Below, in pieces: positions 4,515-25,364 of a stretch of DNA of 64,000 nt. Position 1 is the first letter of the stretch. Each line of letters starts with the position of its first letter. A model generated the notes under the pieces. It was not told the origin of the DNA and searched no databases. It saw only the letters and a list, made by a program, of their open reading frames with translations. The position numbers were made by a program, and so were the translations under genes. This stretch comes from Oscillibacter hominis (lineage in GTDB: Bacteria > Bacillota > Clostridia > Oscillospirales > Oscillospiraceae), in contig NZ_CP060490.1 in the NCBI RefSeq assembly GCF_014334055.1, forward strand, positions 2,356,001 through 2,420,000, read 5' to 3'.

Positions 4515-4528
4515 ATACATGGACAAGG
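4515..4528. promoter_or_regulatory. Motif atacatggacaagg, copy 1
   Basis: This 14-nt sequence lies 44 bp before the ATG of the hybrid kinase, just after an AT-rich promoter-like stretch (tataaa at 4502-4507). An identical copy lies at 11514-11527 beside the gntR gene. A 14-nt match somewhere in 64 kb is not rare by itself; the equivalent position in two signalling-gene leaders is what makes it notable. It could be an operator for the GntR protein. Confidence 0.35.
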
Positions 4529-4572
4529 TTAGCAAAATTGACTTAAGCCTGGTAAGGGGATGGAGAAGAAGT

Positions 4573-6714
4573 ATGAAAATTTCGACAAAGGCCAGGCGAA
4601 TGAAATTGCGTTCGATGTGTATTTTAGCCGGGATCATTTTCCTGATTCTGGCGTCTGTCGCTGTTTTTTTGTATTCTTACCAGCAGCTAAGCCGAAATAT
4701 TCAACAGGAGCGAAGAGCCTATGTCAGTGAAATCAGCGGGCAGCTTGATTCAAACATCTCCACGACACGCTCCGTCAATATGCGGCTCTCGACCTTACTC
4801 GCAGACGTCCTTTCCGCTTCTCAACCCGATACGTTTGAAGCCTGCTGTATGCTTTTGCAAAGCTATTCCCAAGACAGCAGCGGAGAAATATTTTTTGCAA
4901 CGTCCGATGGTCTTGTTTTGACCTTTGATGGGACAGCGGTTACAATCGAAAATCGGGATTATGTCAGCCGGATTCTGCGGCAGGACAATTACCCCGCTTT
5001 TGAGCGGATCGGCGTGGAGAATGAATACTGGCTTTTTTCCTCGCTGCTGGAGCGGCCCTGTATGATGGACGGTCAAGAGATTCAGGCGGTGATCCTGGCC
5101 TGGGATAAAGAATCCTATTCTAAAAATATGACCATCTCAATATTTGACGGGCTGGGTTATTCTTTCCTGATCAAACCGGATGGTGTGATCACGGTGTCTC
5201 CGGAAGCTGTGGATCAAGGTGAGATCGGTTTTAATATTTTGACATCCCTGCAGGAGCAAGGGATCGAAGCCTCCATTTACGATCAGCTTCAGTCAGACCT
5301 GGAAAACGGCACAGACAACGCCCTTGTCTGTGAGCTGTCCGGTATCCAGTGGCTGCTGCAATATCATCGTCTGGAGGAGGGCAGCTTTACATTTATCATG
5401 CTCCCGTTGGCGCTGACGGCAGCCGGGACCTATCAAGGCTTGACCGCCACCCTGCTTTCAGCTTTGGGCGTGTTCTTTTCCTTGTTCCTGCTGGTGTTTT
5501 ATGTGATTCTCATGAGCACAAGAAAAGAAAAACAGCGCCAGAAAGAACTGTACGAGTTCCGCCTCGCCCAAAAAGCGATGGAGGCGAAAAACGATTTCCT
5601 CGCCAAAATGTCTCATGACATCAGGACCCCGCTGAACGGCATTATCGGCATGAATTACCTCACGGTTCCCAAGATCGGCACAGACGACAAGGGCGCTCTG
5701 GAGAATCTGAAAAAAATGGAGAACACCTCCAAGTACCTGCTCAACCTCATCAACGATATTTTGGATATGAGCAAAATCGAAAGCGGGAAAATGGAGATTG
5801 CAAGCAAAGCCTTCTCCATGGAGGACTTGCTCCAAAATATTAAGAATATGCTTGAGATCACCGCCGCGGAGAAAAATCTGGAGTTCAAGACAGTTTTCCA
5901 TATCAGCAGCAAATATGGGTATCTGGGCGACGCGCTCCGGATCAACCAGGTTTTGATGAACCTGCTTTCCAACGCTTTCAAGTTTACGCGGCAAGGGGGC
6001 GTCAGCCTGGAGGTATCCACTGAGAGGGCAGACGACCGATATGACCGGATCACAGTTGTGATCGCAGATACAGGCGTGGGCATGTCGCCGGAATATCTGA
6101 AGAATATCTTTACGCCGTTCCTGCAGGAAAGCAACGAGACCGCGGAAACCTATGGCGGCAGCGGCCTGGGCCTTTCCATTGTAAAAAGCCTCCTGGATCT
6201 GATGGGGGGAACCATCTCAGTACATAGCGAAAAAGGAGTCGGAACAAAATTTGTGGTCTGTCTGCCTTTGGAGCGTACAGACATCCAGACACGGGAAATT
6301 GATGAGGATACGCCAGGCAAGGTGGACACCCTGGCGGGAAAACGGGTTTTGGTTGCCGAGGACAACGAACTCAACGCGGAGATCACCATCGAAGTCCTGC
6401 GGATGAAGGGGCTGGAGGTGGACTGGGCCAAGACGGGCAAGGAAGCGGTGGAGCGTTTCCTGTCGGCCGAACCGGGCTGGTATTCGCTCATTCTCATGGA
6501 TATCCACATGCCGGAAATGGACGGCCTGACCGCCGCGAAAACCATTCGGGCATCCGGCCACCCGGACGCGGCCACCATCCCGATCTGCGCGCTTTCCGCC
6601 AACGCTTTTGAAGACGACGCAGCAGCATCCCGGGAAGCCGGGATGAACGACCACTTAAAAAAGCCGCTGGAGCTGGATCAGCTGTACGCGGCCCTTGTAA
6701 AGTATATAAAATAA
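4573..6714 (+). CDS. Membrane hybrid sensor histidine kinase (TM-extracellular-TM-HisKA-HATPase-REC)
   Basis: ATG 4573 is preferred because GGAG at 4561-4564 precedes it; an in-frame ATG at 4519 would add 18 residues but has no ribosome site. The 713-residue product has a transmembrane helix at ~14-36, an extracellular sensor of ~250 residues, a second helix at ~290-315, a HisKA domain with the phospho-acceptor in SHDIRTPLNGI (~347), a HATPase domain (NLLSNAFKF, DTGVGM, GSGLGLSI) and a C-terminal receiver with its Asp in LILMDIHMPEMDG (~641). It autophosphorylates and passes phosphate to its own receiver, which needs an Hpt partner; one is encoded at 14454. The lipoprotein gene starts 17 bp downstream, so a solute-binding lipoprotein probably feeds this sensor. 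Confidence 0.93.
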   Translation: MKISTKARRMKLRSMCILAGIIFLILASVAVFLYSYQQLSRNIQQERRAYVSEISGQLDSNISTTRSVNMRLSTLLADVLSASQPDTFEACCMLLQSYSQDSSGEIFFATSDGLVLTFDGTAVTIENRDYVSRILRQDNYPAFERIGVENEYWLFSSLLERPCMMDGQEIQAVILAWDKESYSKNMTISIFDGLGYSFLIKPDGVITVSPEAVDQGEIGFNILTSLQEQGIEASIYDQLQSDLENGTDNALVCELSGIQWLLQYHRLEEGSFTFIMLPLALTAAGTYQGLTATLLSALGVFFSLFLLVFYVILMSTRKEKQRQKELYEFRLAQKAMEAKNDFLAKMSHDIRTPLNGIIGMNYLTVPKIGTDDKGALENLKKMENTSKYLLNLINDILDMSKIESGKMEIASKAFSMEDLLQNIKNMLEITAAEKNLEFKTVFHISSKYGYLGDALRINQVLMNLLSNAFKFTRQGGVSLEVSTERADDRYDRITVVIADTGVGMSPEYLKNIFTPFLQESNETAETYGGSGLGLSIVKSLLDLMGGTISVHSEKGVGTKFVVCLPLERTDIQTREIDEDTPGKVDTLAGKRVLVAEDNELNAEITIEVLRMKGLEVDWAKTGKEAVERFLSAEPGWYSLILMDIHMPEMDGLTAAKTIRASGHPDAATIPICALSANAFEDDAAASREAGMNDHLKKPLELDQLYAALVKYIK

Positions 6715-6730
6715 ACGGGGGAACTGTTGA

Positions 6731-8725
6731 ATGAAACACAAAAAATCAATTTCGCTGCTGCTGGCAGCCGCGTTGAGTGTGGGTGCATTGAGCGGCTGCG
6801 GGGCGCGGGACGCAAAGCAAGATCTGCCCGTGGGCGCGGCGGAAAACGAGATCATCGCTTATCAGCCTGTGGAGGACGGCAAAATGCTGATCACCATCCG
6901 CGCCGAGTACAATGGGATGCCGGAAAACTTGGAAGAGGTCATTGAAACCAAGTTTCCCGATGTGGATATAGTGATCCGCCTTCATGCCAGCCCTAACGGC
7001 GGCGATGAAATAGGCGCCTGTCTGGAGCATCAGGATTTTGAGGATATGGTTTTCTCCTGGGGGATCTCCACGGCAGACGGCGAGCGCCTGGCGGACAACT
7101 TTGCGGATTTGTCCTCAAAAGGCTTTGTCAGCAATTACTATACCTCAGTTCTCAACAGCTGCGCGTATAATGGCCGCTTATATTTCCTCCCCGGCCCAAG
7201 CAAGATCCAGGGGCTCGTATATGACCAAACACTGTTTGAGGAGCACGGCTGGCAAGTTCCGGCCAGCCTGGATGAATATCTGGCTCTCTGTAAAACGATC
7301 CAGGAGGAAACCGACCTGCTTCCGGCGGACTTTACCTTTAAGTGGGCCAGCGGGCTGTCCGTCGTTTTGAATACATGGGCCTATGGAGAGGTGCTGGCCG
7401 GCGACGCCAATTATCAGTGGCTGCAGAAGTACGCGGCGGGTGAGGAAAGCATGATCGGTCATATGGAGCCCATGTTTGAGCTGTTCCAAAAGCTGTTGGA
7501 CGCCGGCGCCATCACCGAGGGCACCTTTACCCGTGAGCCGGGGAACCGCAGCAAGGCCCTGTACTCCGAGCACACCACCGCCATGACCAGCGAGACCCAG
7601 ATGGCGCCCATTTACGCCCAGAAGCTGAACTCCGACCACCAGTACGCCATGATGCCTTTCTGGGGCGGCAACGACCCAGACTCGGATTATCTGGGCGTGG
7701 AGAGCACCTACAACATTGCGGTGAACAAGGCGCTGGAAGCCGAGGGCAGCGAGGAAAAGTATGATAAGGTCATGGAAATCATGGCGTGGCTCAGCACTCC
7801 GGAGGGCCAGCTGGCCATGATCGATGGGATGGGCATGACCATCAGCAGCGTAAAAGACGTCCCCATGGTCAGTACTGACTTTACCCGAAATATAGAGGCG
7901 ACCATTGCGAAAGGGCACCTGGTGCCCAAGACGTATTACACCCGCGCCTCCGATTCCAAAGCGTTTTACGAAACGTTCCAACAGGGCTTTTGGAATATCG
8001 CCAAGGGCACCCAGACGCCGGAAGAAGTGATGCGTGACTGCGACGCCAAGGTGCTGGAGCTGCTCCAAACCACACCGGAAGAGAAGCCGGCGGCGCTGTA
8101 CACCGCCGCCGCGGAGGACTTTTCCCGTCTGGAAACCGGGCTCTACATCGCGGATGCCCTGCGCCGCGCAACGGATACCGACCTGAGCATCATTCTGGTT
8201 GGGAAAGCCGATTGCGGCACGCTCGCGAGGATCTACCAGGGCGATGTGACCGAAATCGATTTGATCAACATCGGCTTGAACACCTTTGATGCCGAGGACC
8301 CGGACTACAATAAATTTGCGGTGACCACCATGACTGGGGCGCAGATCATGGAGATTTTGCGGTACTCCTTTGAGGACGATCCCGCGCAGCAGCGCTCCTT
8401 TACCTGTTTTGTTACCTCTGGGTTGAAGGTGGAATACGCCCCGTGGGCCGCCTCCGGGGAACATCTGGTCAAGGTGACAAACGATGACGGCAGCGAGTTT
8501 GATTTGAATAAAACCTATTCCGTCAGCTACTGCAACGGCTCCTTTACCACGCCGGGCAGCTCCGGCACCGAGATTACAGATCCGATCATCCCCGGCCTGG
8601 AACCGGAGAAGATCTACCAGGAGACCTTTGTGGAGCTGTTGGGCCCGGTGATGCGGGCGGACGGTGAGATCAAACCCTTTACCGATGGGCGTCTGGTGCT
8701 GAATTGGGATGTTGTCGAAGAATAA
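6731..8725 (+). CDS. Lipoprotein: extracellular solute-binding protein fused to a 5'-nucleotidase C-terminal-like domain
   Basis: A 664-residue protein with a signal peptide and lipobox (LSGCG, Cys ~22), so it is probably anchored outside the membrane. Residues ~45-450 look like an ABC-type family 1 solute-binding protein (the LPGPSKIQGLVYDQTLFEEHG pattern, late helices with WLSTPEGQLAM). Residues ~460-660 resemble the 5'-nucleotidase C-terminal substrate domain: GLYIADALRRATDTDLSII, then GDVTEIDLINIG and TMTGAQIMEILRYSF. The metallophosphatase half that carries catalysis in that family is missing, so binding rather than hydrolysis is expected. No permease or ATPase of an ABC importer is adjacent. 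With the kinase 17 bp upstream, a sensory role is more likely than transport. Confidence 0.82.
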   Translation: MKHKKSISLLLAAALSVGALSGCGARDAKQDLPVGAAENEIIAYQPVEDGKMLITIRAEYNGMPENLEEVIETKFPDVDIVIRLHASPNGGDEIGACLEHQDFEDMVFSWGISTADGERLADNFADLSSKGFVSNYYTSVLNSCAYNGRLYFLPGPSKIQGLVYDQTLFEEHGWQVPASLDEYLALCKTIQEETDLLPADFTFKWASGLSVVLNTWAYGEVLAGDANYQWLQKYAAGEESMIGHMEPMFELFQKLLDAGAITEGTFTREPGNRSKALYSEHTTAMTSETQMAPIYAQKLNSDHQYAMMPFWGGNDPDSDYLGVESTYNIAVNKALEAEGSEEKYDKVMEIMAWLSTPEGQLAMIDGMGMTISSVKDVPMVSTDFTRNIEATIAKGHLVPKTYYTRASDSKAFYETFQQGFWNIAKGTQTPEEVMRDCDAKVLELLQTTPEEKPAALYTAAAEDFSRLETGLYIADALRRATDTDLSIILVGKADCGTLARIYQGDVTEIDLINIGLNTFDAEDPDYNKFAVTTMTGAQIMEILRYSFEDDPAQQRSFTCFVTSGLKVEYAPWAASGEHLVKVTNDDGSEFDLNKTYSVSYCNGSFTTPGSSGTEITDPIIPGLEPEKIYQETFVELLGPVMRADGEIKPFTDGRLVLNWDVVEE

Positions 8726-8727
8726 AA

Positions 8728-9937: not shown

Positions 9938-9965
9938 CGGTGTCTCACATCCCTAAACATATTGC

Positions 9966-11363
9966 TCAACTCCGTTTTTGGAGAAAATTTGCGGTATGTT
10001 CAATCTTCGCGCCCACCTCGCGCAGCAATTCCATATACCCCTGGGCAAATAGATCTGAATCTTCCGCATCAATCGCTCGAGTCAGCTTCTCAATCGGTGC
10101 GGATGGCCCGGCGCCCATTGTACTCTGCTGCTCCGACAGGAACGGATAGGTGAAAAGCAAAAACTCCAGCAATTTGCCGTAGGTCTCAAAGAAAGCCGTA
10201 ACCGGATGAAGGACCAGGATATATTCCGTTACCAAAACAATGGCTTCCAGCCCGCAAAGGCCCTTGCTGTCTGCCAGGAGGTTTTTCAGATCGCGGGTTC
10301 GCGTCTCATCGAGTCTCAGCAGATCCCTGCTGATGATTTCCTCGGCAGTGAGCAAAAGGAGCTCAATGCTCTCCTTTGCCATCAGGACATTTTTTTGTAT
10401 GGACGGCCGCCGCAGTTTTTCCCAGTTTGGGGCGGAGAACTGTACTTGATTTCCCACGCCGTTTATAGAGTGGATCAAGCCCATATCCCGCAACAGTCCC
10501 ACCGTGCGCCGGGCGGTGTTTACAGAAACGGCGAACTCCAGAGCCATATTTTCATAGGACGGAAGCATCTCCCCCTCTGCGTATTTTCCTTTTATAAGAC
10601 CGTAAATGATTCTCGCGGCCAGGGTATGGCAGTGCTGCGGCCTGTCCCGATAGGTCTGCCAGTGAAAGGAGATTTGATCCGGCACTGCCGCGGTTTGGGA
10701 AGTGTCGTCAATAAACCCCTGTAAAACCTGTTGAGTTATCGACTGTAACCCCATGAACGCCCGGAATACGCCGCCGCGGTCAAGAGCTTCGCAGCTTGCT
10801 ATCAGATTCCTGTGGCATTCCTGATATTCTTCACTGGTCTCCTCATCAAAGGATGTAATATAGGGGAACTGAAAAAAGGAAACCATATCTGCAAAAAGAG
10901 ATCTTATCAGCTGATTTTGGACGGCGTTTAGCATCCTGTTGCAGCAGAACATAGAGATGGACACGATGCCCGCGTTTTTTTGCCTGCATACCCGCAAAAT
11001 CTCGTGCAGCTCATAGTCAGTGAGTTTTTGAGCCCCCGCGCGGAACACAGGCGTTAAAAGCAGATCGGTCACTTGATAAACGGTGCCGATGGCCTCTTTG
11101 CGGGCCAGATAATATTGCCGCGTGACCTGGAGCGTCTCTTCCGGAGTGGTCTCATGCACCACCAGGGTATGGCGGCCGGGAGAAACATCGATCAAATGGT
11201 CCTGCTGCAATTTTCTCAAAGCGTTCCGTACAGTTTGAGGCGCTACCTGGAATGTGCCGCCGATCTGTTCTATGGTGGGCAGAAATTCGCCCTTGCGCAG
11301 ATGTCCGAACAGAATGTGACATTTATAATACTCGTAAATCAAGTTGTACTTTCCACGTTCCAA
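9966..11363 (-). CDS. GntR-family regulator with two winged-helix domains in one chain
   Basis: The TTG at 11361-11363 is chosen because AGAGGAG lies 8 nt upstream and the product then begins MERGKYNLIY, a normal GntR start; the frame is open much further upstream without sensible sequence. The 465-residue protein has a GntR winged helix at ~5-75 (FGHLRKGEFLPTIEQIGG, VAPQTVRNALRKLQ), a helical domain, a second winged helix at ~245-315 (KGKYAEGEMLPSYENMALEF, VSVNTARRTVGLL) and another helical domain. The halves resemble each other, so it looks like an internal duplication that could bind DNA as a monomer. It is transcribed away from the c-di-GMP/phosphorelay genes and is the best candidate regulator of the island. 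Confidence 0.85.
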   Translation of the reverse strand: MERGKYNLIYEYYKCHILFGHLRKGEFLPTIEQIGGTFQVAPQTVRNALRKLQQDHLIDVSPGRHTLVVHETTPEETLQVTRQYYLARKEAIGTVYQVTDLLLTPVFRAGAQKLTDYELHEILRVCRQKNAGIVSISMFCCNRMLNAVQNQLIRSLFADMVSFFQFPYITSFDEETSEEYQECHRNLIASCEALDRGGVFRAFMGLQSITQQVLQGFIDDTSQTAAVPDQISFHWQTYRDRPQHCHTLAARIIYGLIKGKYAEGEMLPSYENMALEFAVSVNTARRTVGLLRDMGLIHSINGVGNQVQFSAPNWEKLRRPSIQKNVLMAKESIELLLLTAEEIISRDLLRLDETRTRDLKNLLADSKGLCGLEAIVLVTEYILVLHPVTAFFETYGKLLEFLLFTYPFLSEQQSTMGAGPSAPIEKLTRAIDAEDSDLFAQGYMELLREVGAKIEHTANFLQKRS

Positions 11364-11812
11364 AATCGTCTCTCCTCTGGTTTTTAGAAAATCGCACCGG
11401 GCACCTCGTGTTGGATTAATATTCATTATACACTTTTTTAGCCGGATTGCGAGAAGAAAGTAATATTCTGTTGATTTATGCAATTGAAGTTGGTACAATA
11501 AAATCATATATACATACATGGACAAGGACGGCACTGTAATTTTCACGCAGCATGGGCCTGGGCCGGAGAAAATGATAAGGAGTTCACGGATGTTCTCCCG
11601 CACTGTGAAAAAGTCATAAAACTGACGTCTGTGACACTTTAAACCTTATTAATTGTATTTTTGCAAATTCTACCATAAGATTATCGGCACAATCTGCGTC
11701 CAATATGAACAGAATAGTCAGCTTTTGTAATCAACAAACTTTACGAAAGAAAGGGCGGTTCATCTCCCTTCTTTCTATGCCGGAATCGTGAGAGAAAAGA
11801 GGAGATTTTCGT
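11364..11812 (+). promoter_or_regulatory. Divergent control region between gntR and the c-di-GMP gene
   Basis: This 449-bp stretch has no convincing gene. On the plus strand a strong promoter reads TTGATT (11471-11476), 17 bp, TACAAT (11494-11499). Copy 2 of the atacatggacaagg motif follows at 11514-11527. A 33-codon frame starts inside it (ATG 11518 to TAA 11619) but lacks a ribosome site, so translation is doubtful. Near 11744-11779 an imperfect GAAAG...CTTTC hairpin precedes the ribosome site of the next gene. I looked for a c-di-GMP riboswitch pattern here and saw none. Confidence 0.6.
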
Positions 11813-14401: not shown

Positions 14402-14453
14402 AACCGGCGAACCTGCGGGGCCGCAGAAACCGCTAACAGAAAGGGAACGGATT

Positions 14454-14825: not shown

Positions 14826-14898
14826 AAGTACTGCCGCACACATGAAGCATCAACTCACAAGCGCCTTTTAGACGTTTCCGCATAGAAAGGAAATCGAT

Positions 14899-17800
14899 AT
14901 GATGCAGACGAATCACCTCTCCGCCGAACTGCAGGCCGCACTCAATCAGCTTCCCAGTGGGCTGGCAATTTATCAGCTTAATAACGGACAACTCTGCTCT
15001 ATATTCCGCAACCCGGCTTTTTACCGGGTGATGGGATATGGAGAGGAACATATTGCCCAGAGCGAAGCCGGGCAGCTCTTTATCAATATCATTGAGGAGG
15101 ACCGGTCCGCCCTTTTGGAAAGGACCATGGAAGCGCTGGAAAGCGATGAAGAGATGGTCTATACCCTGCGGGTCTTCAACGACCGGCTCCAAAGCCGCCG
15201 CTGGATCCATTTGGAGGGTTCCCGCCAAATCCAGGCGGACGGCTCAACACTTCTGTATATCACCTACACGGACGTCACGGAAGAAAGACATGTAGAGTCG
15301 GAATTGGCGGCCGCCAATGAGAAAATGCAGGATATTGTCAACGCGATCCCCGGCGGCGTGGCCATCTATAAAATGACGAATATCTTTGAAACCGTCTATT
15401 TTTCCGACGGCATCCCCAAGCTGACCGGCTACACGGCGGAGGAATACCGCGAGCTGTGTAAGCGCGACGCGGCGGAAATGACCTATCCGGAGGATACTCC
15501 CGCCGTCATAGAGAAATTGCAGGAGGCCGTCCGGAACCATACGACTGCAAAATTTGAATTCCGCAAGCGGCATCGTGACGGCCATATCGTGTGGGTGCGC
15601 ATTCAGGCCAGACAAATCGGCGAAGCGGACGGGGCGCCGCTGATCCACTGCGTTTTCCATGATATCTCCGAGCTGAAAGAGACCCAGCAAGAGATGAGCC
15701 ATCTGCTGGACTCCATCCCCGGCGGCGTCGCCAGCTACCGGGTTGAGGACGGCAAATTTATCCCCGTCTTTTATTCGGAAGGGGTTTCCGCCCTCTCGGG
15801 CCACACCCCGGCAGAATTTGACGCAATGATCGCCGGGGATGCCTACAACGCCATCTACCCGGGCGATCTCGACCGGGTGATCCGGGCGGCGGAGGAAGCC
15901 CTGCGCATTGGGAACATCCTGGATATCTCCTACCGGACGCGGCATAAAAACGGAAGCCTGGTATGGGTCCATTTCAACGGCCGCAGAATCGGGCCTCTCA
16001 CGGCGTCCACGCGGTTTTACGCCTCTATTACCGGCCTGTCCTCGGAGTCCCGCATGTACCAGGAACTGGCCGAAGAATTGGCGGATTCCATCTATGTTAT
16101 CAGCCAGGAAAACTATGAGCTGCTCTATTCCTACGAGACAAAGAAGCTGCTCCCAGACGCAGAGAACTGCATTGGGAAGAAGTGTTACGAGGCCTTGCAG
16201 GGCCGCACGACCCCTTGCTCTTTCTGCAATTTTCTAAAAGGCAATCCCGGTGAGAATATCCAGGCCGTCTCGCACCGGAACAACCGAACTTACAGCATGC
16301 ATTACCGGAAGACCGTTTGGAACGGGATTCCCGCCTATATCCAATATCTGCGGGACGCTACGGAAGAGATTGAAATTCAGCGGGAAAAAGAGCGTCTGGA
16401 GCAGTACTTTCAGACGCTGGTGGAAACGCTGCCCGGCGGGGTCGTTGTGGTGCGGGGCAAAACGGGTGAAGCTCTCGCGGCAGAGTTTATATCGGCGGGC
16501 TTTGCCGCCATGGTCGGCGTCACGGTGGAAAGGGCATGGGAAATTTACGGAGAGGACACTATGGCTTCAGTCCATCCGAAAGACCGGCCAATCCTGATCG
16601 GACAGCTTGATGCGTTGTTCTCCCAGCAGAGTACCCGCGGAGAGCTGTCCTATCGGCTGAAGAATGGAAAAGGAAGCTATCTCTGGATCAAAAACACGCT
16701 CTCCATTATAACCGGCAAGGATGGAAACCGGCGGCTGTATATGTTTTTGCAGGATATCACGGAAGAACATGAGAAACAAAGGCGGATACGCGAGCAATAT
16801 AAAGAAATGCTGCTGCAGCATTACCGGACGCCCGGCCCAAACGCGCTGATCGTGGGCCATTGCAACGTCACCCGGGATTTGATCCTGGAGATCAACGACT
16901 ATACCGTCTCTCAGGCCACAAGGTCATTCGGCCCAAACCGGGAGGGGTTCTTTACTGCGCTGGCCGGCCTGATCGTCGATCCCCAAGAGCGGCAGAAGTT
17001 TCTGGACACCTATCTCAACGAGCCGCTTCTGGCGGCCTACCGCCGCGAGAACACCGAGCAGGTCCGCTCCTGTTTTATCCGGATCCCCGGCGAAGAAACG
17101 GGGCGGTATGCCCGGTGTCAGGTCAATCTGGTGAAGGAGCCCGACACCGGCGATATCACCGGCATTTTGACTGTAACGGACATCACGGAACAGGCCGTCT
17201 CCGAACGGGTCCTTCACCGGCTCTCCAACACTGGGTACGACCATATTGTGACCGTTGACCTGATCCGCGACCGGTACAAGATCTTCACCAGCGACGCCAG
17301 CGCCTGCTGTGTGCCGCTCCCCGACGGCGGCTCCCACTCCGGTTGGATGGAGTATATGCTGGAGAACTGGGTCGTTCCAAAAGACCAGGAAAATTACAAG
17401 AAATATCTGGACGCCGCTTATATGGCCGAACGGCTGGCCAAAAGTGGGACCTACACCTTCGACTATTCCGTGGCGGATGAGGATGGGAGCATCCGGGTAA
17501 AGCGGATGACCGTTTTTTCCATCGACCCGCGGCTGGGGCTGGCGTGTCTGGCCCGAACGGATGTGACGGAGTCGGTACGGGAGCAGCAGGGTCTGCTGAA
17601 CATGCTGGCCTATACGTTTGAGCTGGCCAGCTTTGTCAATGTGGCAACAGGCCGGATGGTGATGTATACCCGCCAGACGGTACTGGAGGATCTGTCGCCG
17701 TATATTATGGAGGACTATGGCGCGCAAATCGCGGAAGCGATAAATCATTATGGAAACACGCAGCAGGAGCGGGAGAAGCTCCACGGTCAGTTCAAATTGA

Positions 17801-19206
17801 GCACCATACTGGACCAACTGGAAAAGAAGCCCCTGGGCTATGATTTTGTGTGCCCCTATCATGAAGAGGGAGGGCTTCGATACAAAAAAATCAATATCCT
17901 GTGGGGCGACCGGAACCATCAGACTGTTTGCGTTGTACGCGCGGATGTGACCGAAATGCTGACGGCCGAACGGAAAACCAAGGAGGAGCTGGAACACGCC
18001 CTTGAGCTGGCGGAACAGGCCAATCAGGCCAAGACCGCATTCCTCTCCTCCATGAGCCACGATATCCGCACCCCCATGAACGCCATCATGGGGATGACGA
18101 CACTCGCAAACGCCCATATGGACGACCGGTCCTATGTGGAAGACTGCCTGGGGAAGATCTCAGTCTCCTCCCGGCACCTGCTGAACCTCATCAACGATAT
18201 TCTGGAGATGAGCAAGATCGAGCGGGCGGATGTGGAGCTGAAGCGGGAACGGGTTTCCCTGCGGGAGCTGGCGGAGCAGGTCTCCACGATGATCCGCCCC
18301 CAGGTGGAAGAAAAAAAACTGCAGTTCCGGACCAGGGCCGATTCCATTGCCCATGCGTATTTTTATGGCGACCCCCTGCGGCTCAATCAGATCCTCATCA
18401 ACATACTGGGCAACGCGGTCAAATTCACCCCCGAGGGCGGCATCGTGGACTTTTTGGCAGAGGAATGCCCGGCGGCGGCAGCGGATTGCGTTCGTTACCG
18501 TTTCTCTATTCAGGACACAGGGGTTGGCATGTCCGAGCAAGTGTTATCCCATGTTTTTGAACCTTTCACCCGTGGCGAGAATGTGGGGCGTATTGAGGGA
18601 ACCGGTCTTGGTCTGAGCATTACCAAGGGGCTGGTGGACCGGATGGGAGGAAGCATTTCCGCAGAAAGCCGGGAGGGCGCGGGTTCCCTGTTCCGGGTCG
18701 AACTGGAATTTGAGCTCTGCCATGAGCCGGAAGAGATGTCCATGTCAAAGGCGCGGGAACTTCCCGGCCCCGGCGATGACAGCGCCTTGGCCGGGCGGCG
18801 GTTTTTGATCGCGGAGGATAACGAGATCAACGCGGAGATTCTCACCAGCCTGCTGGAGATGTTTGGCTGCACCGCGCTGGTGAAGACCGACGGCGCCCAG
18901 GCGGTACAGGAGTTCACCATGTCCCCGGCGGGAACCTATGACGCGATTTTGATGGACATTCAGATGCCGGTGATGACCGGCTATGAGGCGGCAAAAGCCA
19001 TCCGGGCGCTGCCCCGGGAGGATGCCGGCACGATCCCCATCATCGCCATGACGGCCAACGCCTTTGCCGAGGATGTGCAGGCCGCGTTAAAAGCAGGGAT
19101 GACCGCCCATGTGGCCAAGCCCATCGATCTGAATGTGCTGAAAACGACTTTAAAAAACGCGATATTACAAAATCTGAGGCTCAAGGAACGCCAACACAAG
19201 AGGTGA
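14899..19206 (+). CDS. Cytoplasmic multi-PAS hybrid histidine kinase
   Basis: 1,435 residues with no signal peptide or membrane helix. Several PAS repeats fill residues ~10-1000: the recurring IPGGV...Y and FRKRHRDGHIVWVRIQA-type segments mark at least four. One PAS-like segment (~405-435) carries GKKCYEALQGRTTPCSFC, a Cys cluster seen in other Firmicutes PAS proteins. HisKA has its His in SHDIRTPMNAIMGM (~1053), then HATPase (NILGNAVKF, DTGVGM, GTGLGLSI) and a receiver with Asp in ILMDIQMPVMTG (~1352). It senses intracellular cues of unknown identity. AAGGAAA precedes the start; the next gene follows after 4 bp. Confidence 0.93.
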   Translation: MMQTNHLSAELQAALNQLPSGLAIYQLNNGQLCSIFRNPAFYRVMGYGEEHIAQSEAGQLFINIIEEDRSALLERTMEALESDEEMVYTLRVFNDRLQSRRWIHLEGSRQIQADGSTLLYITYTDVTEERHVESELAAANEKMQDIVNAIPGGVAIYKMTNIFETVYFSDGIPKLTGYTAEEYRELCKRDAAEMTYPEDTPAVIEKLQEAVRNHTTAKFEFRKRHRDGHIVWVRIQARQIGEADGAPLIHCVFHDISELKETQQEMSHLLDSIPGGVASYRVEDGKFIPVFYSEGVSALSGHTPAEFDAMIAGDAYNAIYPGDLDRVIRAAEEALRIGNILDISYRTRHKNGSLVWVHFNGRRIGPLTASTRFYASITGLSSESRMYQELAEELADSIYVISQENYELLYSYETKKLLPDAENCIGKKCYEALQGRTTPCSFCNFLKGNPGENIQAVSHRNNRTYSMHYRKTVWNGIPAYIQYLRDATEEIEIQREKERLEQYFQTLVETLPGGVVVVRGKTGEALAAEFISAGFAAMVGVTVERAWEIYGEDTMASVHPKDRPILIGQLDALFSQQSTRGELSYRLKNGKGSYLWIKNTLSIITGKDGNRRLYMFLQDITEEHEKQRRIREQYKEMLLQHYRTPGPNALIVGHCNVTRDLILEINDYTVSQATRSFGPNREGFFTALAGLIVDPQERQKFLDTYLNEPLLAAYRRENTEQVRSCFIRIPGEETGRYARCQVNLVKEPDTGDITGILTVTDITEQAVSERVLHRLSNTGYDHIVTVDLIRDRYKIFTSDASACCVPLPDGGSHSGWMEYMLENWVVPKDQENYKKYLDAAYMAERLAKSGTYTFDYSVADEDGSIRVKRMTVFSIDPRLGLACLARTDVTESVREQQGLLNMLAYTFELASFVNVATGRMVMYTRQTVLEDLSPYIMEDYGAQIAEAINHYGNTQQEREKLHGQFKLSTILDQLEKKPLGYDFVCPYHEEGGLRYKKINILWGDRNHQTVCVVRADVTEMLTAERKTKEELEHALELAEQANQAKTAFLSSMSHDIRTPMNAIMGMTTLANAHMDDRSYVEDCLGKISVSSRHLLNLINDILEMSKIERADVELKRERVSLRELAEQVSTMIRPQVEEKKLQFRTRADSIAHAYFYGDPLRLNQILINILGNAVKFTPEGGIVDFLAEECPAAAADCVRYRFSIQDTGVGMSEQVLSHVFEPFTRGENVGRIEGTGLGLSITKGLVDRMGGSISAESREGAGSLFRVELEFELCHEPEEMSMSKARELPGPGDDSALAGRRFLIAEDNEINAEILTSLLEMFGCTALVKTDGAQAVQEFTMSPAGTYDAILMDIQMPVMTGYEAAKAIRALPREDAGTIPIIAMTANAFAEDVQAALKAGMTAHVAKPIDLNVLKTTLKNAILQNLRLKERQHKR

Positions 19207-19210
19207 CTAT

Positions 19211-22000
19211 ATGAAACAGCAAATACATAGAGGGATCCACCGCCTTGCCGCGGCATTTCTGTCGACACTTCTGGCAGTATCTCTTTTCTTTCCCTGCGCG
19301 GCCGCGGCGGCGCCAGAGGAAGTTGTTCTGCGGGTAGCATTCCCCAATGCGGAGGGGTACACCTCTCTTTCAGAGGATGGTTCACCCGTCGGTGTGGTGG
19401 TGGATTATCTCAACGAGATTTCCAAATACACCGGCTGGAAATACGAATATGTCCCTACGAGCAACGCGGTGGGAGACTTCCAGGATGGAAAATTTGATTT
19501 AATGGGCGGGACCTTTTACAACGAAGGCCTGGAAGACATGTTTGGCTACCCGGACTATAACTGCGGTTACACAGAAGCAAAGCTGATGGCCAGGAAGGAT
19601 GACGCCTCCATCCGCAGCTATGACACGGGGACGCTGAACGGCAAAACCATCGGCGTGTATGACCGGTCCACCGAAAACATCCAACGTCTCAAAGATTGGC
19701 TGACCATTCAGGCTCTGGACTGCGAGCTCCGCTATTACAGCCGTGAGGACCTTGAAAATGGGAATCTATATAACCGGTTAGAGAGCGGAGAGGTGGACCT
19801 GCTGCTGGGCTATGGTACGGACATGCCGGACACCCTATACGCGGCGAAGTCCTTCGGCGGCCAGGCCCATTACATTGTCACCCAGCCGGGTGACAATGTA
19901 ATATTGGACCAGCTCAATATGGCGCTGGAGCAGATCTATGCCGCGGACCCGGAATTTTCGGAAAAAGAGCAAGAGAAGAATTTCGCGGACAACATGACCG
20001 GGTATGCGGTTTTGACAGAGGGGGAACTATCGTACATCGCGGAGAAAGGCACGGTTACCGTTGCGGTCCCGGATAATTGGCACCCCCTGTATTGCGTGGA
20101 CATCGACGATTATCATGAGGGCTTTGTGCCGGACGTATTGAAAAAAGTGACCGAGTATTCCGGCCTGCAATTCACTTATCTTCTCTGCGACTCCTATATG
20201 GACTCGATCATTATGGTACAAGAGGGAAAAGCCGATATGCTGGGCTTTTTCCTGGGTCCTGAAGCGCGCGCGTCCGATCATGAGTTGGCCAGAACGACAG
20301 CCTATGCCGGTCTTTCTCCGATTTTGGTCCGAAATAAAAATGTCACCTATCCCTCGGAGGGCCGGGTATGCGGCGTGATGAACGGCCGAATCAAATCAGA
20401 GTCTATTGTCGCGGACGAGATAATATATTACGACAGCGTCGAAGAGGGATTAAGCGACGTCAACCGGGGAAAGATTGATTTCTTCTATGGGTTAGGCGCC
20501 CACATAGAAAACATCATCCGCACGGAGAATTTCACCAACGTGGTTCAGGTGAGCCTGCCCAATAACAACACCGAGATCAGTTTTGCGGTCTCCAAGCCGG
20601 TGGACTCGCCGCTGTTCTCTATCTTGAATAAGGCCGTCAACAATCTGTCGGAATCCGAAAAAGAAGCCATCAGCAGCTTGAATATGGTCTCCATTGGGGA
20701 CACGCATATCACGCTGTCCAGCATCATTGCCTCCAATCCCCAACTGGCGATCACGGTGGTGATCCTGTTTTTGGCGCTGACCATACTATTGGTGAGCCTT
20801 TATTTTTACTTCCGGCTGCGGTCCGCTAAAATGCGGTTGGGATTGGAAAAAGCGGAGGCGGACAGCAGGGCAAAAAGTGAATTCCTGTCCCGCATGAGCC
20901 ATGAGATCCGCACGCCCATGAACGCGATCGTAGGCCTGGCGGATCTGACCGAGCGGGATCCGGAGCTGTCGGAGAAATCCCGGAACAATCTGAATAAAAT
21001 AAAATCCTCATCCCACTATCTGCTGAGCCTGATCAACGACATTTTGGATATGAGCCGCATTGAGAGCGGGAAAATGGAATTGGAGCATACCGCGTTTTCC
21101 ATGGATACGCTGTTGTGCGACATAGAGAGTATGCTGACCACCGACGCGGAGCGCCGGCAGATCCATTTCCAAGTGGATAGTGATCTGCGCGGTGAGGTCT
21201 ACCTGGGAGACAATATCCGGCTGCGGCAGGTGATCTTAAACCTTCTGTCCAACGCGTTCAAGTTCACCCCAGAAGGCGGCACGGTGCGCCTCTGCGTTGA
21301 GGGGGATTCCGACACAGATACAGAGCGGACATTGACCGTCAAGGTGATCGACACCGGCGTGGGAGTATCCGCTGAGAATCAGCAGCGCATCTTCCGCAGC
21401 TTTGAACAGGTCGGGACCAGTACCTCCAAGAGCCAGGGAACCGGGCTGGGACTTGCCATCAGCCGGAGTATTGTGCGCTTGATGGGCGGCGACCTGCTCC
21501 TGGAAAGCGAGCCGGGCAAAGGCAGCGTCTTTTATTTTACAATCACGCTCGAGAAAGGGACTCTGGAAGAGCCGACGATTGAAATGTCGGCCGGAGAACG
21601 GACGTTTGCGGGCGCCAATATCCTGCTGGCGGAAGATAACGATCTGAACGCCGAAATTGCGGTAGAGTTGCTGCGGTGCCAGGGAGCCATGGTGCAGCGG
21701 GTGGAAAACGGCAGGCTCGCGGTGGAGCTGTTTCAAGACAAGGGGCCGGGCGCTTTCCAGGCGATCTTAATGGATATCCAGATGCCGGAGATGAATGGAT
21801 TGGAGGCCACTGCGGCCATCCGGGCGCTGGACCGGCCGGACGCCAAAACCATTCCCATCATCGCCATGACCGCAAACACCTTTAAGGAAGATGTGGAGGC
21901 GGCAATGGCGGCCGGGATGACAAGCTTCATTTCAAAACCGGTGGATGTTGAAACGCTTTATAACGAACTTCACGCCGCTGTTCATAAAAACATTAACTAA
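19211..22000 (+). CDS. BvgS-like hybrid kinase with two periplasmic-binding domains
   Basis: 929 residues: a signal peptide/N-terminal helix (~1-34), two solute-binding protein family 3 domains in tandem (~36-260 and ~275-500, the second starting after ELSYIAEKGTVTVAVPDNWHP), a transmembrane helix (~515-540), HisKA with SHEIRTPMNAIVGL (His ~562), HATPase (NLLSNAFKF, DTGVGV, GTGLGLAI) and a receiver with Asp in ILMDIQMPEMNG (~853). Family 3 domains in kinases bind amino acids or similar small solutes outside the cell. No PAS or Hpt domain is present, unlike BvgS itself. It starts 4 bp after the multi-PAS kinase, with AGAGGTGA as ribosome site, so both are surely one operon. Confidence 0.93.
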   Translation: MKQQIHRGIHRLAAAFLSTLLAVSLFFPCAAAAAPEEVVLRVAFPNAEGYTSLSEDGSPVGVVVDYLNEISKYTGWKYEYVPTSNAVGDFQDGKFDLMGGTFYNEGLEDMFGYPDYNCGYTEAKLMARKDDASIRSYDTGTLNGKTIGVYDRSTENIQRLKDWLTIQALDCELRYYSREDLENGNLYNRLESGEVDLLLGYGTDMPDTLYAAKSFGGQAHYIVTQPGDNVILDQLNMALEQIYAADPEFSEKEQEKNFADNMTGYAVLTEGELSYIAEKGTVTVAVPDNWHPLYCVDIDDYHEGFVPDVLKKVTEYSGLQFTYLLCDSYMDSIIMVQEGKADMLGFFLGPEARASDHELARTTAYAGLSPILVRNKNVTYPSEGRVCGVMNGRIKSESIVADEIIYYDSVEEGLSDVNRGKIDFFYGLGAHIENIIRTENFTNVVQVSLPNNNTEISFAVSKPVDSPLFSILNKAVNNLSESEKEAISSLNMVSIGDTHITLSSIIASNPQLAITVVILFLALTILLVSLYFYFRLRSAKMRLGLEKAEADSRAKSEFLSRMSHEIRTPMNAIVGLADLTERDPELSEKSRNNLNKIKSSSHYLLSLINDILDMSRIESGKMELEHTAFSMDTLLCDIESMLTTDAERRQIHFQVDSDLRGEVYLGDNIRLRQVILNLLSNAFKFTPEGGTVRLCVEGDSDTDTERTLTVKVIDTGVGVSAENQQRIFRSFEQVGTSTSKSQGTGLGLAISRSIVRLMGGDLLLESEPGKGSVFYFTITLEKGTLEEPTIEMSAGERTFAGANILLAEDNDLNAEIAVELLRCQGAMVQRVENGRLAVELFQDKGPGAFQAILMDIQMPEMNGLEATAAIRALDRPDAKTIPIIAMTANTFKEDVEAAMAAGMTSFISKPVDVETLYNELHAAVHKNIN

Positions 22001-22073
22001 AACATGAGAGGCTGGCTGCACAGGCCCGGATTCTTCCGCACTGAGTCTGCGTCCCATTTAGGAGGAAGCAAAA

Positions 22074-25000
22074 GTGAATTCTAAAGAGCAAATATGTCAT
22101 GAGGCGGAAGCCCTGGCCCGCAGGATACTGACCAGCTATTTCTGCAATTCCGACGTTGAATGCTTGATCTCTACCCTGGCGCCCGATGTTTTATGGCTGG
22201 GCGGCGGGAAAGAAATGCGGGCGCGCGGGCGCGAGGCCGTGACCGCCGCTTTCCGAAATGGCGGCGAGATGATCGCCTACGACCTGACGGAAGAACACTA
22301 CGATACCTTGGATATGGGCGGCGGCACTTATCTGTGCCAGGGGATCGGCTGGATCACCAGCAAACCGGGGCAGCAGATGTATGTGCGTTATCACCAGCGC
22401 TGTACCTTCGTCTTCCGCGAAACGCCCCACGGGCTGGAAACGGCGTATATCCACAACTCCATGTCCATGCGGGAAGACTTTGGGGAGGGAGAGCTGTTCC
22501 CCATCCAGGAAGCCCGCGACGGTTATGAGCGGCTGAAGGGCATCCTCTCCCAGCGGGAGCAGCAAATTGAGCTGATGCTCTCTCAGCTGCCCGGCGGGAT
22601 GCTTACCTGCCGGGCGGACGACGATTTTACCATTGAGTGGGTCAGTGATGGCTTATGTGAGCTGCTGGATTACGCCGATACCAACGAACTGTATCGGGCT
22701 TCCGGCGGTACCGTCCGTGGTTTCGTGGTTCCGGAAGATTACGGCGCGATGCTGGCGCAGACAAAGGCCGCGCTGTTGAAGAAAGACGCCTACAGCACGG
22801 AATACCGGGTGCGGAAAAAAGATGGCGGGACGCTGTGGGTGGCGGATTTCGGAAAACGGGTCGTCTCCGCGCAGGGAACGGCGCTGATCTACTGCTTTAT
22901 CTCTGACATCTCGGAAAAAAAGGCTCGGGAACAACAGATCATGGAGTCCAACCAGGAGGCGGCGCAGCAGGCACACTTTCTGACCCAGCTGTACAATACG
23001 GTCCCCTGCGGGATCCTGCAGTTTGAACCAGAGCCCCCTTATGCCATCGTGAGCGTGAACCGAATGGTCTGGGAATTTTACGGATATGAGAGCGAGGCGG
23101 CTTACCGCGCGGCGGTGCTCGATCCGTTCCAGCTTGTCCTGGAGCAAGAGCGCGCGCATATCCGCAGTGTGGCGGACGGCCTTGCCCTAAACGGCAGCCC
23201 GGCTACCTATACCCGGGAAAGCGTCCGGCAGGACGGAACCCAAGTGTGGATTAACGTGGTGATGGAGCGGCTCTTAAACGCCAACGGGCAGGACGTTATC
23301 CAGGCGGTATTCACCGATGTGACCAACCTCCACCTGCTTCAGCAGGAACGGGAGCAGGCACAGCTTCTGGAGAACCGCTTGCTCCAGACGGCCATCCAGA
23401 CCACCTATCCGTTGATCGTCAGCGTGAATCTGACCCAGGATACCTATCAATGCATTGTAGAAAACGGCAGAGAAAGCACACTGCCGGCGGGCGGAATTTA
23501 TTCCAAACTGGTCCGGGAAACAAATGAGAATCTTGCTCCCTCTTTCCAGCAGAATTATACCGCGACATTTGACCGGCAAACCGTGCTGAATCGCTTTGCC
23601 GGTGGTGAGAAGGAGCTCTATATCGAAATACAGGCAAAAGACGCAAATGGCTTAGAGCATTGGATATCCCTCTGTTTGATCTCCGTGGAAAATCCGTTTG
23701 GCAGCGATGAGCTGTGCATCATGCTGGTCAAGGTGCTGGATGATCAGCACGCGGAACAGGCCCGGCAGGAACAGCTGCTTCGGGATGCGCTGGCGGCGGC
23801 CAACGCGGCAAGCCATGCAAAAAGCGATTTTCTGTCCCGTATGAGCCACGATATCCGAACTCCCATGAACGCCATCATCGGGATGAGCACCATCGGCCAA
23901 CTCAAAGCTGACGACCATCAGCGGACCCAGGACTGCTTCCAAAAGATCGACGCTTCCTCCCGTTACCTTTTGAGCCTTATCAACGATGTACTGGATATGA
24001 GCAAAATTGAGACAGGAAAAATGACGATTGAGAGAAAGCCCTTTGATTTTTCTGAGCTGATACAGGAGCTCACCACAATTTTGTATCCCCAGTTTGCCGA
24101 GCATGGAATTTTCTTTGAAATCACCCATGAGGAACCGCTGGACCGGATCTATGTGGGGGATGCCCTGCGGCTCAATCAGATTCTGATGAATCTGCTGTCC
24201 AATGCGCTCAAGTTTACCCGCCGAAGCGGCAGGGTCTCCCTTCATATGAAGGAAAGCAGCCGGACCAACGGCTATTCCTACCTGACCTTCACTGTTTCGG
24301 ACACCGGAATTGGAATGTCCAGGGAATTTTTAGAGCGGATTTTCCAGCCCTTTGAGCAGGAAGATTCCAGCTTTGCCCGCAACAAGGTGGGCAGCGGTCT
24401 CGGCCTTTCTATTGTGCATAACCTGGTCCAGCTCATGGGCGGCACCGTGGAGATCAGCAGCGTCAAGGGCAGAGGTTCCACATTTACCATTTCCATTCCG
24501 CTGGGCCGTGTGGAGGACGACCAGGAAGTGGAACGGCGGCGGAAGAACGCCTCTTTGATGCAGGGCATCGAAGTTCTGGTGGTAGATGACGATAAACTGG
24601 TGGGAGAACAAAGCGCCGCGATTTTGGATCAGATTGGCGCCCATACCGTATGGGTGGATTCCGGCCGGAAGGCAGTGGAGGAGGTCCGTGCCGTGGCCGC
24701 CCGGGGCCGGCACTATGACATCGCCATGATCGACTGGAAAATGCCGGATATGGACGGCATTGAGACCACACGCCAGATCAGGACGATTGTGGGGCCGGAA
24801 ACCACAATTATCGTCATCTCCGCTTACGATTGGAGAAGCATTGAGGATGAGGCAAGGGCGGCCGGGGCCGACAGTTTTATTTCCAAACCCCTGTTTTTCT
24901 CCACGATCTGCGATACCTTCTCCGCGCTGCGCTTTGGCAGTCAATCCCTTGAACAGACCGCGCAGGCGAATCCGTTGGTCGGACACAGAATTTTGCTGGT

Positions 25001-25364
25001 CGAGGATAATGCGCTGAATATGGAGATCGCCAAGTCAATTTTGGAAATCTACGGCATGGAAGTCGTTACCGCCGAGGATGGTCAGCAGGCGGTGGACCTT
25101 TTCGCCGCGGCGCCGGTGAATCATTTTCTGGCGGTGCTGATGGATATCCGCATGCCGGTCATGGACGGACTGGCTGCCACACAGGCCATCCGGGAACTTC
25201 CCCGGCCGGACGCTAACAGCGTTCCTATCCTTGCCATGAGCGCCAACGCCTTTGAGGAGGATAAGAAACTGGCCTGCGCGGCAGGGATGAACGGCTATAT
25301 TGTAAAGCCGCTGGATATTCAAACCCTTCTTCTGGAGCTGGATAAGCTGACTGATGCAACCTGA
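22074..25364 (+). CDS. Hybrid kinase with NTF2-like N-terminus, PAS domains and two receivers
   Basis: 1,096 residues starting at GTG 22074 with GGAGGAAG upstream. Residues ~1-140 look like an NTF2/SnoaL-like fold (calycin-like layout with VLWLGGGKEMRARGREAV and YHQRCTFVFRET), here probably a ligand-binding sensor. Two PAS domains follow (~165-290, ~300-425), then a less clear region, HisKA (SHDIRTPMNAIIGM, His ~591), HATPase (NLLSNALKF, DTGIGM, GSGLGLSI), and two receivers with Asp in AMIDWKMPDMDG and VLMDIRMPVMDG. Both receivers keep their Lys (SKPL, VKPL). No membrane segment, so it is cytoplasmic. It ends the co-directional run. Confidence 0.92.
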   Translation: MNSKEQICHEAEALARRILTSYFCNSDVECLISTLAPDVLWLGGGKEMRARGREAVTAAFRNGGEMIAYDLTEEHYDTLDMGGGTYLCQGIGWITSKPGQQMYVRYHQRCTFVFRETPHGLETAYIHNSMSMREDFGEGELFPIQEARDGYERLKGILSQREQQIELMLSQLPGGMLTCRADDDFTIEWVSDGLCELLDYADTNELYRASGGTVRGFVVPEDYGAMLAQTKAALLKKDAYSTEYRVRKKDGGTLWVADFGKRVVSAQGTALIYCFISDISEKKAREQQIMESNQEAAQQAHFLTQLYNTVPCGILQFEPEPPYAIVSVNRMVWEFYGYESEAAYRAAVLDPFQLVLEQERAHIRSVADGLALNGSPATYTRESVRQDGTQVWINVVMERLLNANGQDVIQAVFTDVTNLHLLQQEREQAQLLENRLLQTAIQTTYPLIVSVNLTQDTYQCIVENGRESTLPAGGIYSKLVRETNENLAPSFQQNYTATFDRQTVLNRFAGGEKELYIEIQAKDANGLEHWISLCLISVENPFGSDELCIMLVKVLDDQHAEQARQEQLLRDALAAANAASHAKSDFLSRMSHDIRTPMNAIIGMSTIGQLKADDHQRTQDCFQKIDASSRYLLSLINDVLDMSKIETGKMTIERKPFDFSELIQELTTILYPQFAEHGIFFEITHEEPLDRIYVGDALRLNQILMNLLSNALKFTRRSGRVSLHMKESSRTNGYSYLTFTVSDTGIGMSREFLERIFQPFEQEDSSFARNKVGSGLGLSIVHNLVQLMGGTVEISSVKGRGSTFTISIPLGRVEDDQEVERRRKNASLMQGIEVLVVDDDKLVGEQSAAILDQIGAHTVWVDSGRKAVEEVRAVAARGRHYDIAMIDWKMPDMDGIETTRQIRTIVGPETTIIVISAYDWRSIEDEARAAGADSFISKPLFFSTICDTFSALRFGSQSLEQTAQANPLVGHRILLVEDNALNMEIAKSILEIYGMEVVTAEDGQQAVDLFAAAPVNHFLAVLMDIRMPVMDGLAATQAIRELPRPDANSVPILAMSANAFEEDKKLACAAGMNGYIVKPLDIQTLLLELDKLTDAT

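What the first reader, a model, noticed from the sequence alone, without database searches (positions are those of the whole stretch)
4515..25364. Four hybrid kinases, one Hpt and one c-di-GMP enzyme: a candidate many-input phosphorelay
Seen: three hybrid kinases (14899, 19211, 22074) plus a fourth at 4573, each ending in one or two receivers and none with its own Hpt; a single free Hpt (14454); and a REC-GGDEF-EAL-REC-GGDEF protein directly upstream in the same run of genes. No DNA-binding response regulator lies in the run. Known: hybrid kinases need an Hpt to reach an output receiver. Inferred: extracellular amino-acid-like, nucleotide/sugar-like and cytoplasmic cues converge through the Hpt on the first receiver of the c-di-GMP protein. 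I do not know of this exact arrangement as a described system.
Basis: partly seen in the sequence, partly recalled or inferred. Interest (0 to 1): 0.8.

Follow-up and report, generated by a model that had tools for sequence, protein, structure and literature searches.

The report
Mobile many-sensor relay controlling c-di-GMP
[quoted passage not shown] the same parts recur in relatives.

Summary
Observation confirmed: a + strand run at 11813-25364 encodes REC-GGDEF-EAL-REC-GGDEF, a free Hpt and three Hpt-less hybrid kinases. A fourth hybrid kinase, paired with a binding lipoprotein, lies outside the run.

(1) The parts recur as an operon in several families. (2) In a Pfam-based Clostridia sample, 14 of 20 free Hpts directly adjoin a receiver-bearing c-di-GMP enzyme; 0 of 20 control pieces have one within 5 kb. 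(3) Three such genomes have at least 9-11 hybrid kinases but two Hpts each. (4) An alpha-1 motif (D-x-x-x-N) marks kinase terminal receivers (94/94 distinct) and c-di-GMP-enzyme input receivers (74/81; 22/22 in HD-GYP proteins), not kinase inner receivers (0/51).

New: GGDEF-1 is degenerate and REC-2 is usually a pseudo-receiver (Ser for Asp, 34/39), so REC-1 is the phosphate input. The 15-kb block is 87-90% identical to Diplocloster (Lachnospiraceae) while the host RecJ is Oscillibacter-like: horizontal transfer. A divergent double-GntR gene travels with it.

Components are known kinds; my searches found no description of this arrangement or of the Clostridia association, which is weaker in Bacilli (10/32).

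The parts
4573..6714 (+). fourth hybrid kinase (membrane, extracellular domain, HisKA-HATPase-REC); ORF from 4519
   Evidence: Pfam; homologue lengths; AlphaFold model (sensor fold not identified)
6731..8725 (+). lipoprotein-like solute-binding protein with 5'-nucleotidase C-terminal domain, probable co-receptor of the fourth kinase
   Evidence: Pfam; model pLDDT 87 and family-1 SBP fold; 12 of 64 homologues share a contig length with a kinase homologue, shifted control mean 0.4
9966..11603 (-). double-GntR DNA-binding protein, divergent from the run (true start probably near 11390)
   Evidence: Pfam; conserved with the block; recurs at related loci
11813..14401 (+). REC(active, D56)-GGDEF(degenerate)-EAL(active residues)-REC(pseudo, S626)-GGDEF(intact, RxxD I-site): c-di-GMP enzyme and proposed output
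   Evidence: Pfam; column counts
14454..14825 (+). free Hpt, proposed shared phosphate carrier (His62 from the 14454 start)
   Evidence: Pfam; alignment; tree
14899..19206 (+). PAS-rich hybrid kinase with one receiver, no transmembrane sensor domain in Pfam
   Evidence: Pfam
19211..22000 (+). hybrid kinase with extracellular SBP3 sensor and one receiver
   Evidence: Pfam
22074..25364 (+). PAS hybrid kinase with two receivers
   Evidence: Pfam
37698..38114 (+). excisionase-like protein of the element end
   Evidence: NCBIfam TIGR01764
38160..39554 (+). tyrosine integrase
   Evidence: Pfam; relatives
39764..39839 (-). tRNA-Met, probable attachment site
   Evidence: ARAGORN
39892..39943 (-). partial second copy of that tRNA (52 nt, 94%)
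620..1654 (+). RepA_N replication initiator, mobile-element gene left of the run
   Evidence: Pfam

Best explanation
A many-input, one-carrier phosphorelay with c-di-GMP as output. Inferred path: each hybrid kinase autophosphorylates in response to its cue (SBP3 ligand, PAS cues, and by association the lipoprotein ligand of the fourth kinase), passes phosphate to its own terminal receiver, that receiver phosphorylates the free Hpt, and the Hpt phosphorylates REC-1 of the c-di-GMP enzyme, shifting the balance between its active EAL and its active C-terminal GGDEF. REC-2 cannot take phosphate in the usual way and probably serves as a PleD-like dimer adaptor for the GGDEF. Because phosphotransfer is reversible, an unstimulated kinase can also drain the Hpt. 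The set was acquired horizontally. Shown: gene content, catalytic residues, recurrence, association statistics, near-identity with a distant genome. Inferred: all phosphate transfers, their direction, the sign of the effect on c-di-GMP, and the ligands.
For: Parts and residues. Recurrence: of 80 related loci, 21 have an Hpt and 35 a hybrid kinase in the same-strand run, 12 have both, 9 have an Hpt and at least two hybrids (81 rows less the window); five loci fuse REC-GGDEF-EAL to a HisKA-HATPase-REC, three of them checked in Pfam. Hpt side: 14 of 20 free Hpts of a Pfam-found class sample directly adjoin a REC-bearing c-di-GMP enzyme and 10 of 20 have a hybrid kinase within 5 kb; control 0 of 20 and 1 of 20 (Fisher 3e-6 and 0.003). 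Profile-found second sample 31 of 46, and 0 of 46 directly adjoin another kind of response regulator. Few Hpts: two in each of three genomes with at least 9, 11 and 9 hybrid kinases. All 17 module genomes have a free Hpt against at least 59 of 389 class genomes. Motif D-x-x-x-N: kinase terminal REC 94/94, enzyme REC-1 74/81, HD-GYP-protein REC 22/22, kinase inner REC 0/51, enzyme REC-2 18/64, other single-REC proteins 5/22.
Against: No biochemistry and no complex model. Only 12 of 80 related loci have Hpt and hybrid kinase in one run, 15 of the 51 loci with 5 kb on both sides have neither Hpt, hybrid kinase nor fusion nearby. 6 of 20 free Hpts in the first sample, and 15 of 46 in the second, have no directly adjacent c-di-GMP enzyme. 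In the Bacilli-type sample only 10 of 32 do, 3 of 32 adjoin another receiver protein, and 18 of 32 have neither. The alpha-1 motif may reflect receiver ancestry rather than Hpt docking.
Confidence: 0.72

Rival explanations
1. Direct two-component wiring: each kinase phosphorylates REC-1 directly; the terminal kinase receivers are intramolecular regulators or phosphate sinks and the Hpt serves something else.
For: Many related loci have DGC and hybrid kinase in a run without Hpt: 23 of 35 (less the window). Fusions of REC-GGDEF-EAL to HK-REC carry no Hpt.
Against: Every one of the 17 genomes examined has a free Hpt that could act in trans; free Hpts adjoin c-di-GMP receivers far above control; the input receivers share the D-x-x-x-N motif with kinase terminal receivers, not with inner ones.
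Confidence: 0.12
2. Only some kinases feed this Hpt: the run is a partial relay and, for example, the fourth kinase or the two-receiver kinase has its own target.
For: The fourth kinase is outside the run and outside the 87-90% block; the two-receiver kinase has an extra intact receiver without the motif.
Against: Its terminal receiver carries the same motif as the others (sequence), and no other Hpt or output regulator lies in the run.
Confidence: 0.12
3. Chance assembly: signalling genes accumulated on a mobile element and are not a functional unit.
For: The right flank is an integrase/tRNA end and the GC differs from the chromosome-like flank.
Against: The same parts recur in the same order in unrelated families with 65-70% DNA identity, and the Hpt tree groups by partner type, 8 changes against 21 in shuffles.
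Confidence: 0.04

Closest known systems
Vibrio LuxU phosphorelay (CqsS, LuxPQ, CqsR, VpsS to LuxU to LuxO)
   Same: Several kinases act in parallel on one regulator, LuxO (abstract of PMC4398556; a section heading there reads 'LuxO activation depends on LuxU only'); a periplasmic binding protein pairs with one kinase (LuxP-LuxQ, recalled).
   Different: LuxO is a DNA-binding sigma-54 activator (recalled); here the proposed output is a c-di-GMP enzyme in the same operon. The Vibrio kinases are, as far as I recall, not all encoded in one run.
Pseudomonas HptB pathway
   Same: An Hpt protein whose pathway controls biofilm and motility through a diguanylate cyclase, HsbD (abstract of PMC5085249).
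Borrelia Hk1-Rrp1
   Same: Hybrid kinase with SBP3-like sensor domains beside a response regulator that is a diguanylate cyclase (passages of PMC4013479).
   Different: One kinase with its own Hpt domain (same passages); no free Hpt hub and no multi-kinase operon.
PAPI-1 PvrSR/RcsCB of Pseudomonas aeruginosa
   Same: Two-component genes on a pathogenicity island, two sensors on one regulator, linked to a phosphodiesterase (abstract of PMC3842833).
   Different: Output is transcriptional (RcsB), the phosphodiesterase gene is under RcsB control; no free Hpt named in the abstract.
PleD (REC-REC-GGDEF)
   Same: Residues 616-854 (REC-2 and GGDEF-2) match PleD by sequence; pseudo-receiver before an active GGDEF (PleD detail recalled).
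   Different: Here a degenerate GGDEF and an active EAL lie between the two receivers, so the enzyme is bifunctional.

Membership tests
LuxU-type many-kinase Hpt relay | free Hpt with conserved His | tested here: met
LuxU-type many-kinase Hpt relay | several hybrid kinases without own Hpt | tested here: met
   four kinases, none with a PF01627 hit
LuxU-type many-kinase Hpt relay | LuxO-type DNA-binding response regulator as target | tested here: not met
   no such regulator in the run; the only receiver outside kinases in the run is in the c-di-GMP enzyme. Works like it, is not a member
LuxU-type many-kinase Hpt relay | phosphotransfer between kinases, Hpt and output | not testable with these tools
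   needs purified proteins
HptB pathway | anti-anti-sigma and HsbR partners beside the Hpt | tested here: not met
   none among the Pfam hits of the run genes; HsbR recalled
Response-regulator c-di-GMP enzyme (REC-GGDEF-EAL class) | intact receiver, EAL and GGDEF catalytic residues | tested here: met
   REC-1 D56, EAL metal and catalytic residues, GGDEF-2 and I-site intact; GGDEF-1 and REC-2 not
Hk1-Rrp1 type | SBP3-sensing hybrid kinase beside a REC-bearing cyclase | tested here: met
Hk1-Rrp1 type | kinase with its own Hpt domain | tested here: not met
Integrative element cargo | both attachment sites around the run | tested here: inconclusive
   right end with partial tRNA copy; no left copy in the window, which begins inside element-type genes

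The most novel reading that the evidence does not exclude
In Clostridia the free Hpt is not a general phosphorelay part but a near-dedicated adaptor to c-di-GMP: most of a genome's hybrid kinases, also those encoded elsewhere, drain through one or a few Hpts into receiver-bearing GGDEF, EAL or HD-GYP enzymes, and this bus spreads between families as a mobile module with its own double-GntR regulator.
Probability: 0.45. Interest if true: 0.78.

Novelty: new variant of a known kind. Interest (0 to 1): 0.6.

Why it matters
c-di-GMP control in gut Clostridia is little described in the papers that my searches could reach. If right, one small protein would be the point where many environmental signals are merged into c-di-GMP, and removing it would test the inputs of many orphan hybrid kinases at once. 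The D-x-x-x-N signature gives a sequence rule for telling Hpt-coupled receivers from others, and the transfer between families shows that a whole sensory relay can move as a unit.

Tried and rejected
Own-genome search for the Hpt: no genome is held for the window. Similar plasmids: one 48-base match only. c-di-GMP riboswitch in the window: no Rfam hit except two tRNAs at gathering thresholds. Left attachment site in the window: none at up to 3 mismatches. Sensor fold of the fourth kinase: Foldseek hits on the full model were dominated by the kinase part, so the sensor stays unassigned. My first receiver count used wrong alignment columns for the motif and Thr/Ser and was redone; several related loci had been fetched twice, so counts were redone on distinct sequences. 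One script stopped part-way and its remaining lines were run. Considered and rejected: that the Hpt serves a DNA-binding regulator (in the two Clostridia samples I saw none directly adjoining: 0 of 46 by script, 0 of 20 by eye from the listing; exceptions elsewhere are L097, an HTH-REC gene on the other strand overlapping an Hpt, and three receiver proteins in the Bacilli-type sample).

Limits of the samples. One search listed 24 free Hpts (open frame up to 215 aa) before its list was cut; 20 were fetched, two belong to a genome chosen for the module, and two (in G088 and G079) were not fetched. One search used a profile built from Hpts most of which have c-di-GMP neighbours, so its sample is biased towards them; 46 of its 69 listed free Hpts were new and all 46 were fetched; one (L153) is the same locus as L030. 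The control pieces come from the same genomes, mostly contig starts, and four of 20 are shorter than 9 kb. Neighbour domains were called with profiles that I built from window and locus sequences; key cases were checked in Pfam. In one search adjacency was measured within 450 bases of the Hpt domain on either strand, in the other samples within 250 bases on the same strand.
Full report
What is there. Gaps are short and hold no + strand terminator-like site. A fourth hybrid kinase (4573-6714) with a binding lipoprotein (6731-8725) lies upstream, separated by opposite-strand genes: a permease piece (8901-9485) and a double-GntR protein (9966-11603). All four kinases have intact H, N and G2 boxes.

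The enzyme. Among 39 distinct full-length relatives, REC-1 has the phospho-acceptor Asp in 37 (2 gaps); GGDEF-1 is never GGDEF (one LGDEF); the EAL residues examined are the same in all 39 apart from ESL for EAL in 4; REC-2 has Ser in place of Asp in 34 (Asp 3, Asn 1, gap 1); GGDEF-2 is intact in 35 and the RxxD site is present in 34. So the family has one phosphate input, one active phosphodiesterase, one usually active cyclase, and mostly a pseudo-receiver. REC-2 plus GGDEF-2 match PleD by sequence, which suggests an adaptor role (inference).

Recurrence. Of 195 relatives found in a collection of one genome per species, the best 80 were kept. The commonest full arrangement is enzyme, HK-REC-REC, Hpt, HK-REC, in seven loci (L005, L009, L010, L019, L029, L030, L033, the last three with a shorter enzyme), with SBP3-HK-REC in or beside it in others such as L002 and L003. 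In same-strand runs, 21 of 80 have an Hpt, 35 of 80 a hybrid kinase, 12 of 80 both, 9 of 80 an Hpt with at least two hybrids (81 rows less the window; gaps up to 400 bases). Five loci fuse REC-GGDEF-EAL to HK-REC, three checked in Pfam. Against: of 51 loci with 5 kb on both sides, 15 have neither Hpt nor hybrid kinase nor fusion. The window has the same parts in a different order, shared with Diplocloster modestus.

Starting from the Hpt instead. In 148 genomes drawn evenly from the class, 20 of 24 listed free Hpts were examined: 14 of 20 directly adjoin, on the same strand, a c-di-GMP enzyme with a receiver; 10 of 20 have a hybrid kinase within 5 kb. Control pieces of the same genomes: 0 of 20 and 1 of 20. 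Ten neighbours that my profiles showed only as receivers are all REC-HD-GYP in Pfam (six of the ten are from this or the control-free part of the sample, four from module genomes). A second, profile-based and therefore biased sample gave 31 of 46 directly adjacent, 35 of 46 within 5 kb, 18 of 46 with a hybrid kinase, and 0 of 46 with another kind of response regulator directly adjacent. Other free Hpts fetched from the 17 module genomes: 13 of 26 directly adjacent, 16 of 26 within 5 kb (three of the 26 are module Hpts fetched again). In a class sample around an Erysipelotrichaceae genome the association is weaker: 10 of 32 adjacent to such an enzyme, 3 of 32 to another receiver protein, 18 of 32 with neither a receiver-bearing c-di-GMP enzyme nor a hybrid kinase within about 5 kb. 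The rule is thus a tendency of Clostridia, not of all Firmicutes.

Stoichiometry of genes. PF01627 gives two matches each in three module genomes, all free Hpts, against at least 9, 11 and 9 hybrid kinases covering the kinase-receiver query (the list was cut, so lower bounds). In those genomes all six Hpts lie in a run with, or next to, a receiver-bearing c-di-GMP enzyme. All 17 module genomes have a free Hpt, as have two Erysipelotrichaceae-type genomes with the enzyme, against at least 61 of 391 class genomes, 59 of 389 without two module genomes. Genome size confounds this.

A receiver signature. The residue pattern D-x-x-x-N at the start of alpha-1 is in 94 of 94 distinct kinase terminal receivers, 74 of 81 enzyme REC-1, 22 of 22 receivers of HD-GYP proteins and 12 of 13 of REC-GGDEF proteins, but in 0 of 51 kinase inner receivers, 18 of 64 enzyme REC-2 and 5 of 22 other single-receiver proteins. 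Alpha-1 is part of the Hpt docking face in known complexes (recalled). The donors and the proposed acceptors share it; this is what a common Hpt would require, but common ancestry is an alternative.

Hpt tree. The window Hpt falls in a supported set of 14 rows, 13 of them beside a REC-EAL enzyme; the organisms named on those rows carry six different family labels. Partner type is clustered on the tree (EAL label 8 changes, shuffled mean 21.3, 0 of 500 as low), though many forks are unresolved and some rows are long branches.

Transfer. Window 9944-25319 is 87.3% (4.9 kb) and 89.7% (10.4 kb) identical to Diplocloster modestus, a Lachnospiraceae, with nothing comparable outside that block apart from short matches. 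The host RecJ is 71% identical to that of Oscillibacter valericigenes and 36% to that of Diplocloster. No such identity appeared in 150 genomes of the Oscillibacter family, nor in the rest of 200 genomes of the Diplocloster family (few candidate stretches per genome were scored, lists cut). GC is 55% in the run, 51-53% in its flanks up to the tRNA and 61% beyond. The right side ends in excisionase, integrase and tRNA-Met with a 52-nt partial copy; relatives of the integrase were found in 3 of 150 genomes, in two of them next to a called tRNA-Met. RepA_N is at the left. The left end was not found, so that the run is inside this element is likely, not shown.

Inputs. The SBP3 kinase suggests amino-acid-like ligands (family knowledge). 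The lipoprotein beside the fourth kinase models well (mean pLDDT 87) and is most like family-1 sugar-binding proteins (3quf, TM 0.80 by target); its C-terminal part is a 5'-nucleotidase C-terminal domain. Similar binding proteins sit beside hybrid kinases at five other loci; the 5'-nucleotidase domain is above Pfam's cut-off in two, just below in two and absent in one. 12 of 64 homologues share their contig length with a listed homologue of the kinase, shifted control mean 0.4, largest 3, which indicates linkage. No ABC permease was seen among the genes examined next to it.

A further part. A protein of about 490 aa with two GntR domains (Pfam) is in the transferred block and recurs (E below 1e-60) at 8 of 80 enzyme loci, 6 of 29 other loci from module genomes, 0 of 20 and 1 of 46 class-sample Hpt loci, and 0 of 20 control pieces. 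Diplocloster has a second one between Hpt and kinase. It may regulate the run; function is unknown, and its role is conjecture.

Known systems. Vibrio LuxU, Pseudomonas HptB, Borrelia Hk1-Rrp1 and PAPI-1 PvrSR/RcsCB each share some features (abstracts; passages), none all. Searches for this arrangement in the held papers listed no paper that, from title and abstract start, describes it; most subscription papers are not held.

Verdict. The relay reading stands as the most likely (0.72). It is a new variant of a known kind, with a Clostridia-wide association that would be of more general interest if confirmed.

Noticed in passing
9966-11603 (-): Double-GntR protein, divergent from the run, conserved in the transferred block and recurrent at related signalling loci.
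   Followed up: partly
8901-9956 (-): Permease piece with an ArsP_1 match (positions 8-143 of 294) and a further ORF, inserted between the SBP and GntR genes relative to Diplocloster (L001).
   Followed up: partly
37698-39943: Excisionase, integrase and tRNA-Met with a partial second tRNA copy, the right end of an integrative element; two sigma-like ORFs before it.
   Followed up: partly
25969-31140 (-): 1723-aa S-layer-homology protein, convergent with the run, possible surface target; no c-di-GMP riboswitch was found in the window.
   Followed up: no
31564-33613 (-): GHKL histidine kinase and LytTR response regulator pair, an ordinary quorum-type two-component system near the element's right part.
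   Followed up: no
L034, L035, L036, L042, L045: REC-GGDEF-EAL fused to HK-REC in a single open frame.
   Followed up: partly
2201-3706 (+): 501-aa protein without Pfam hit, weak S1-like match, next to RepA_N and DUF5697.
   Followed up: no
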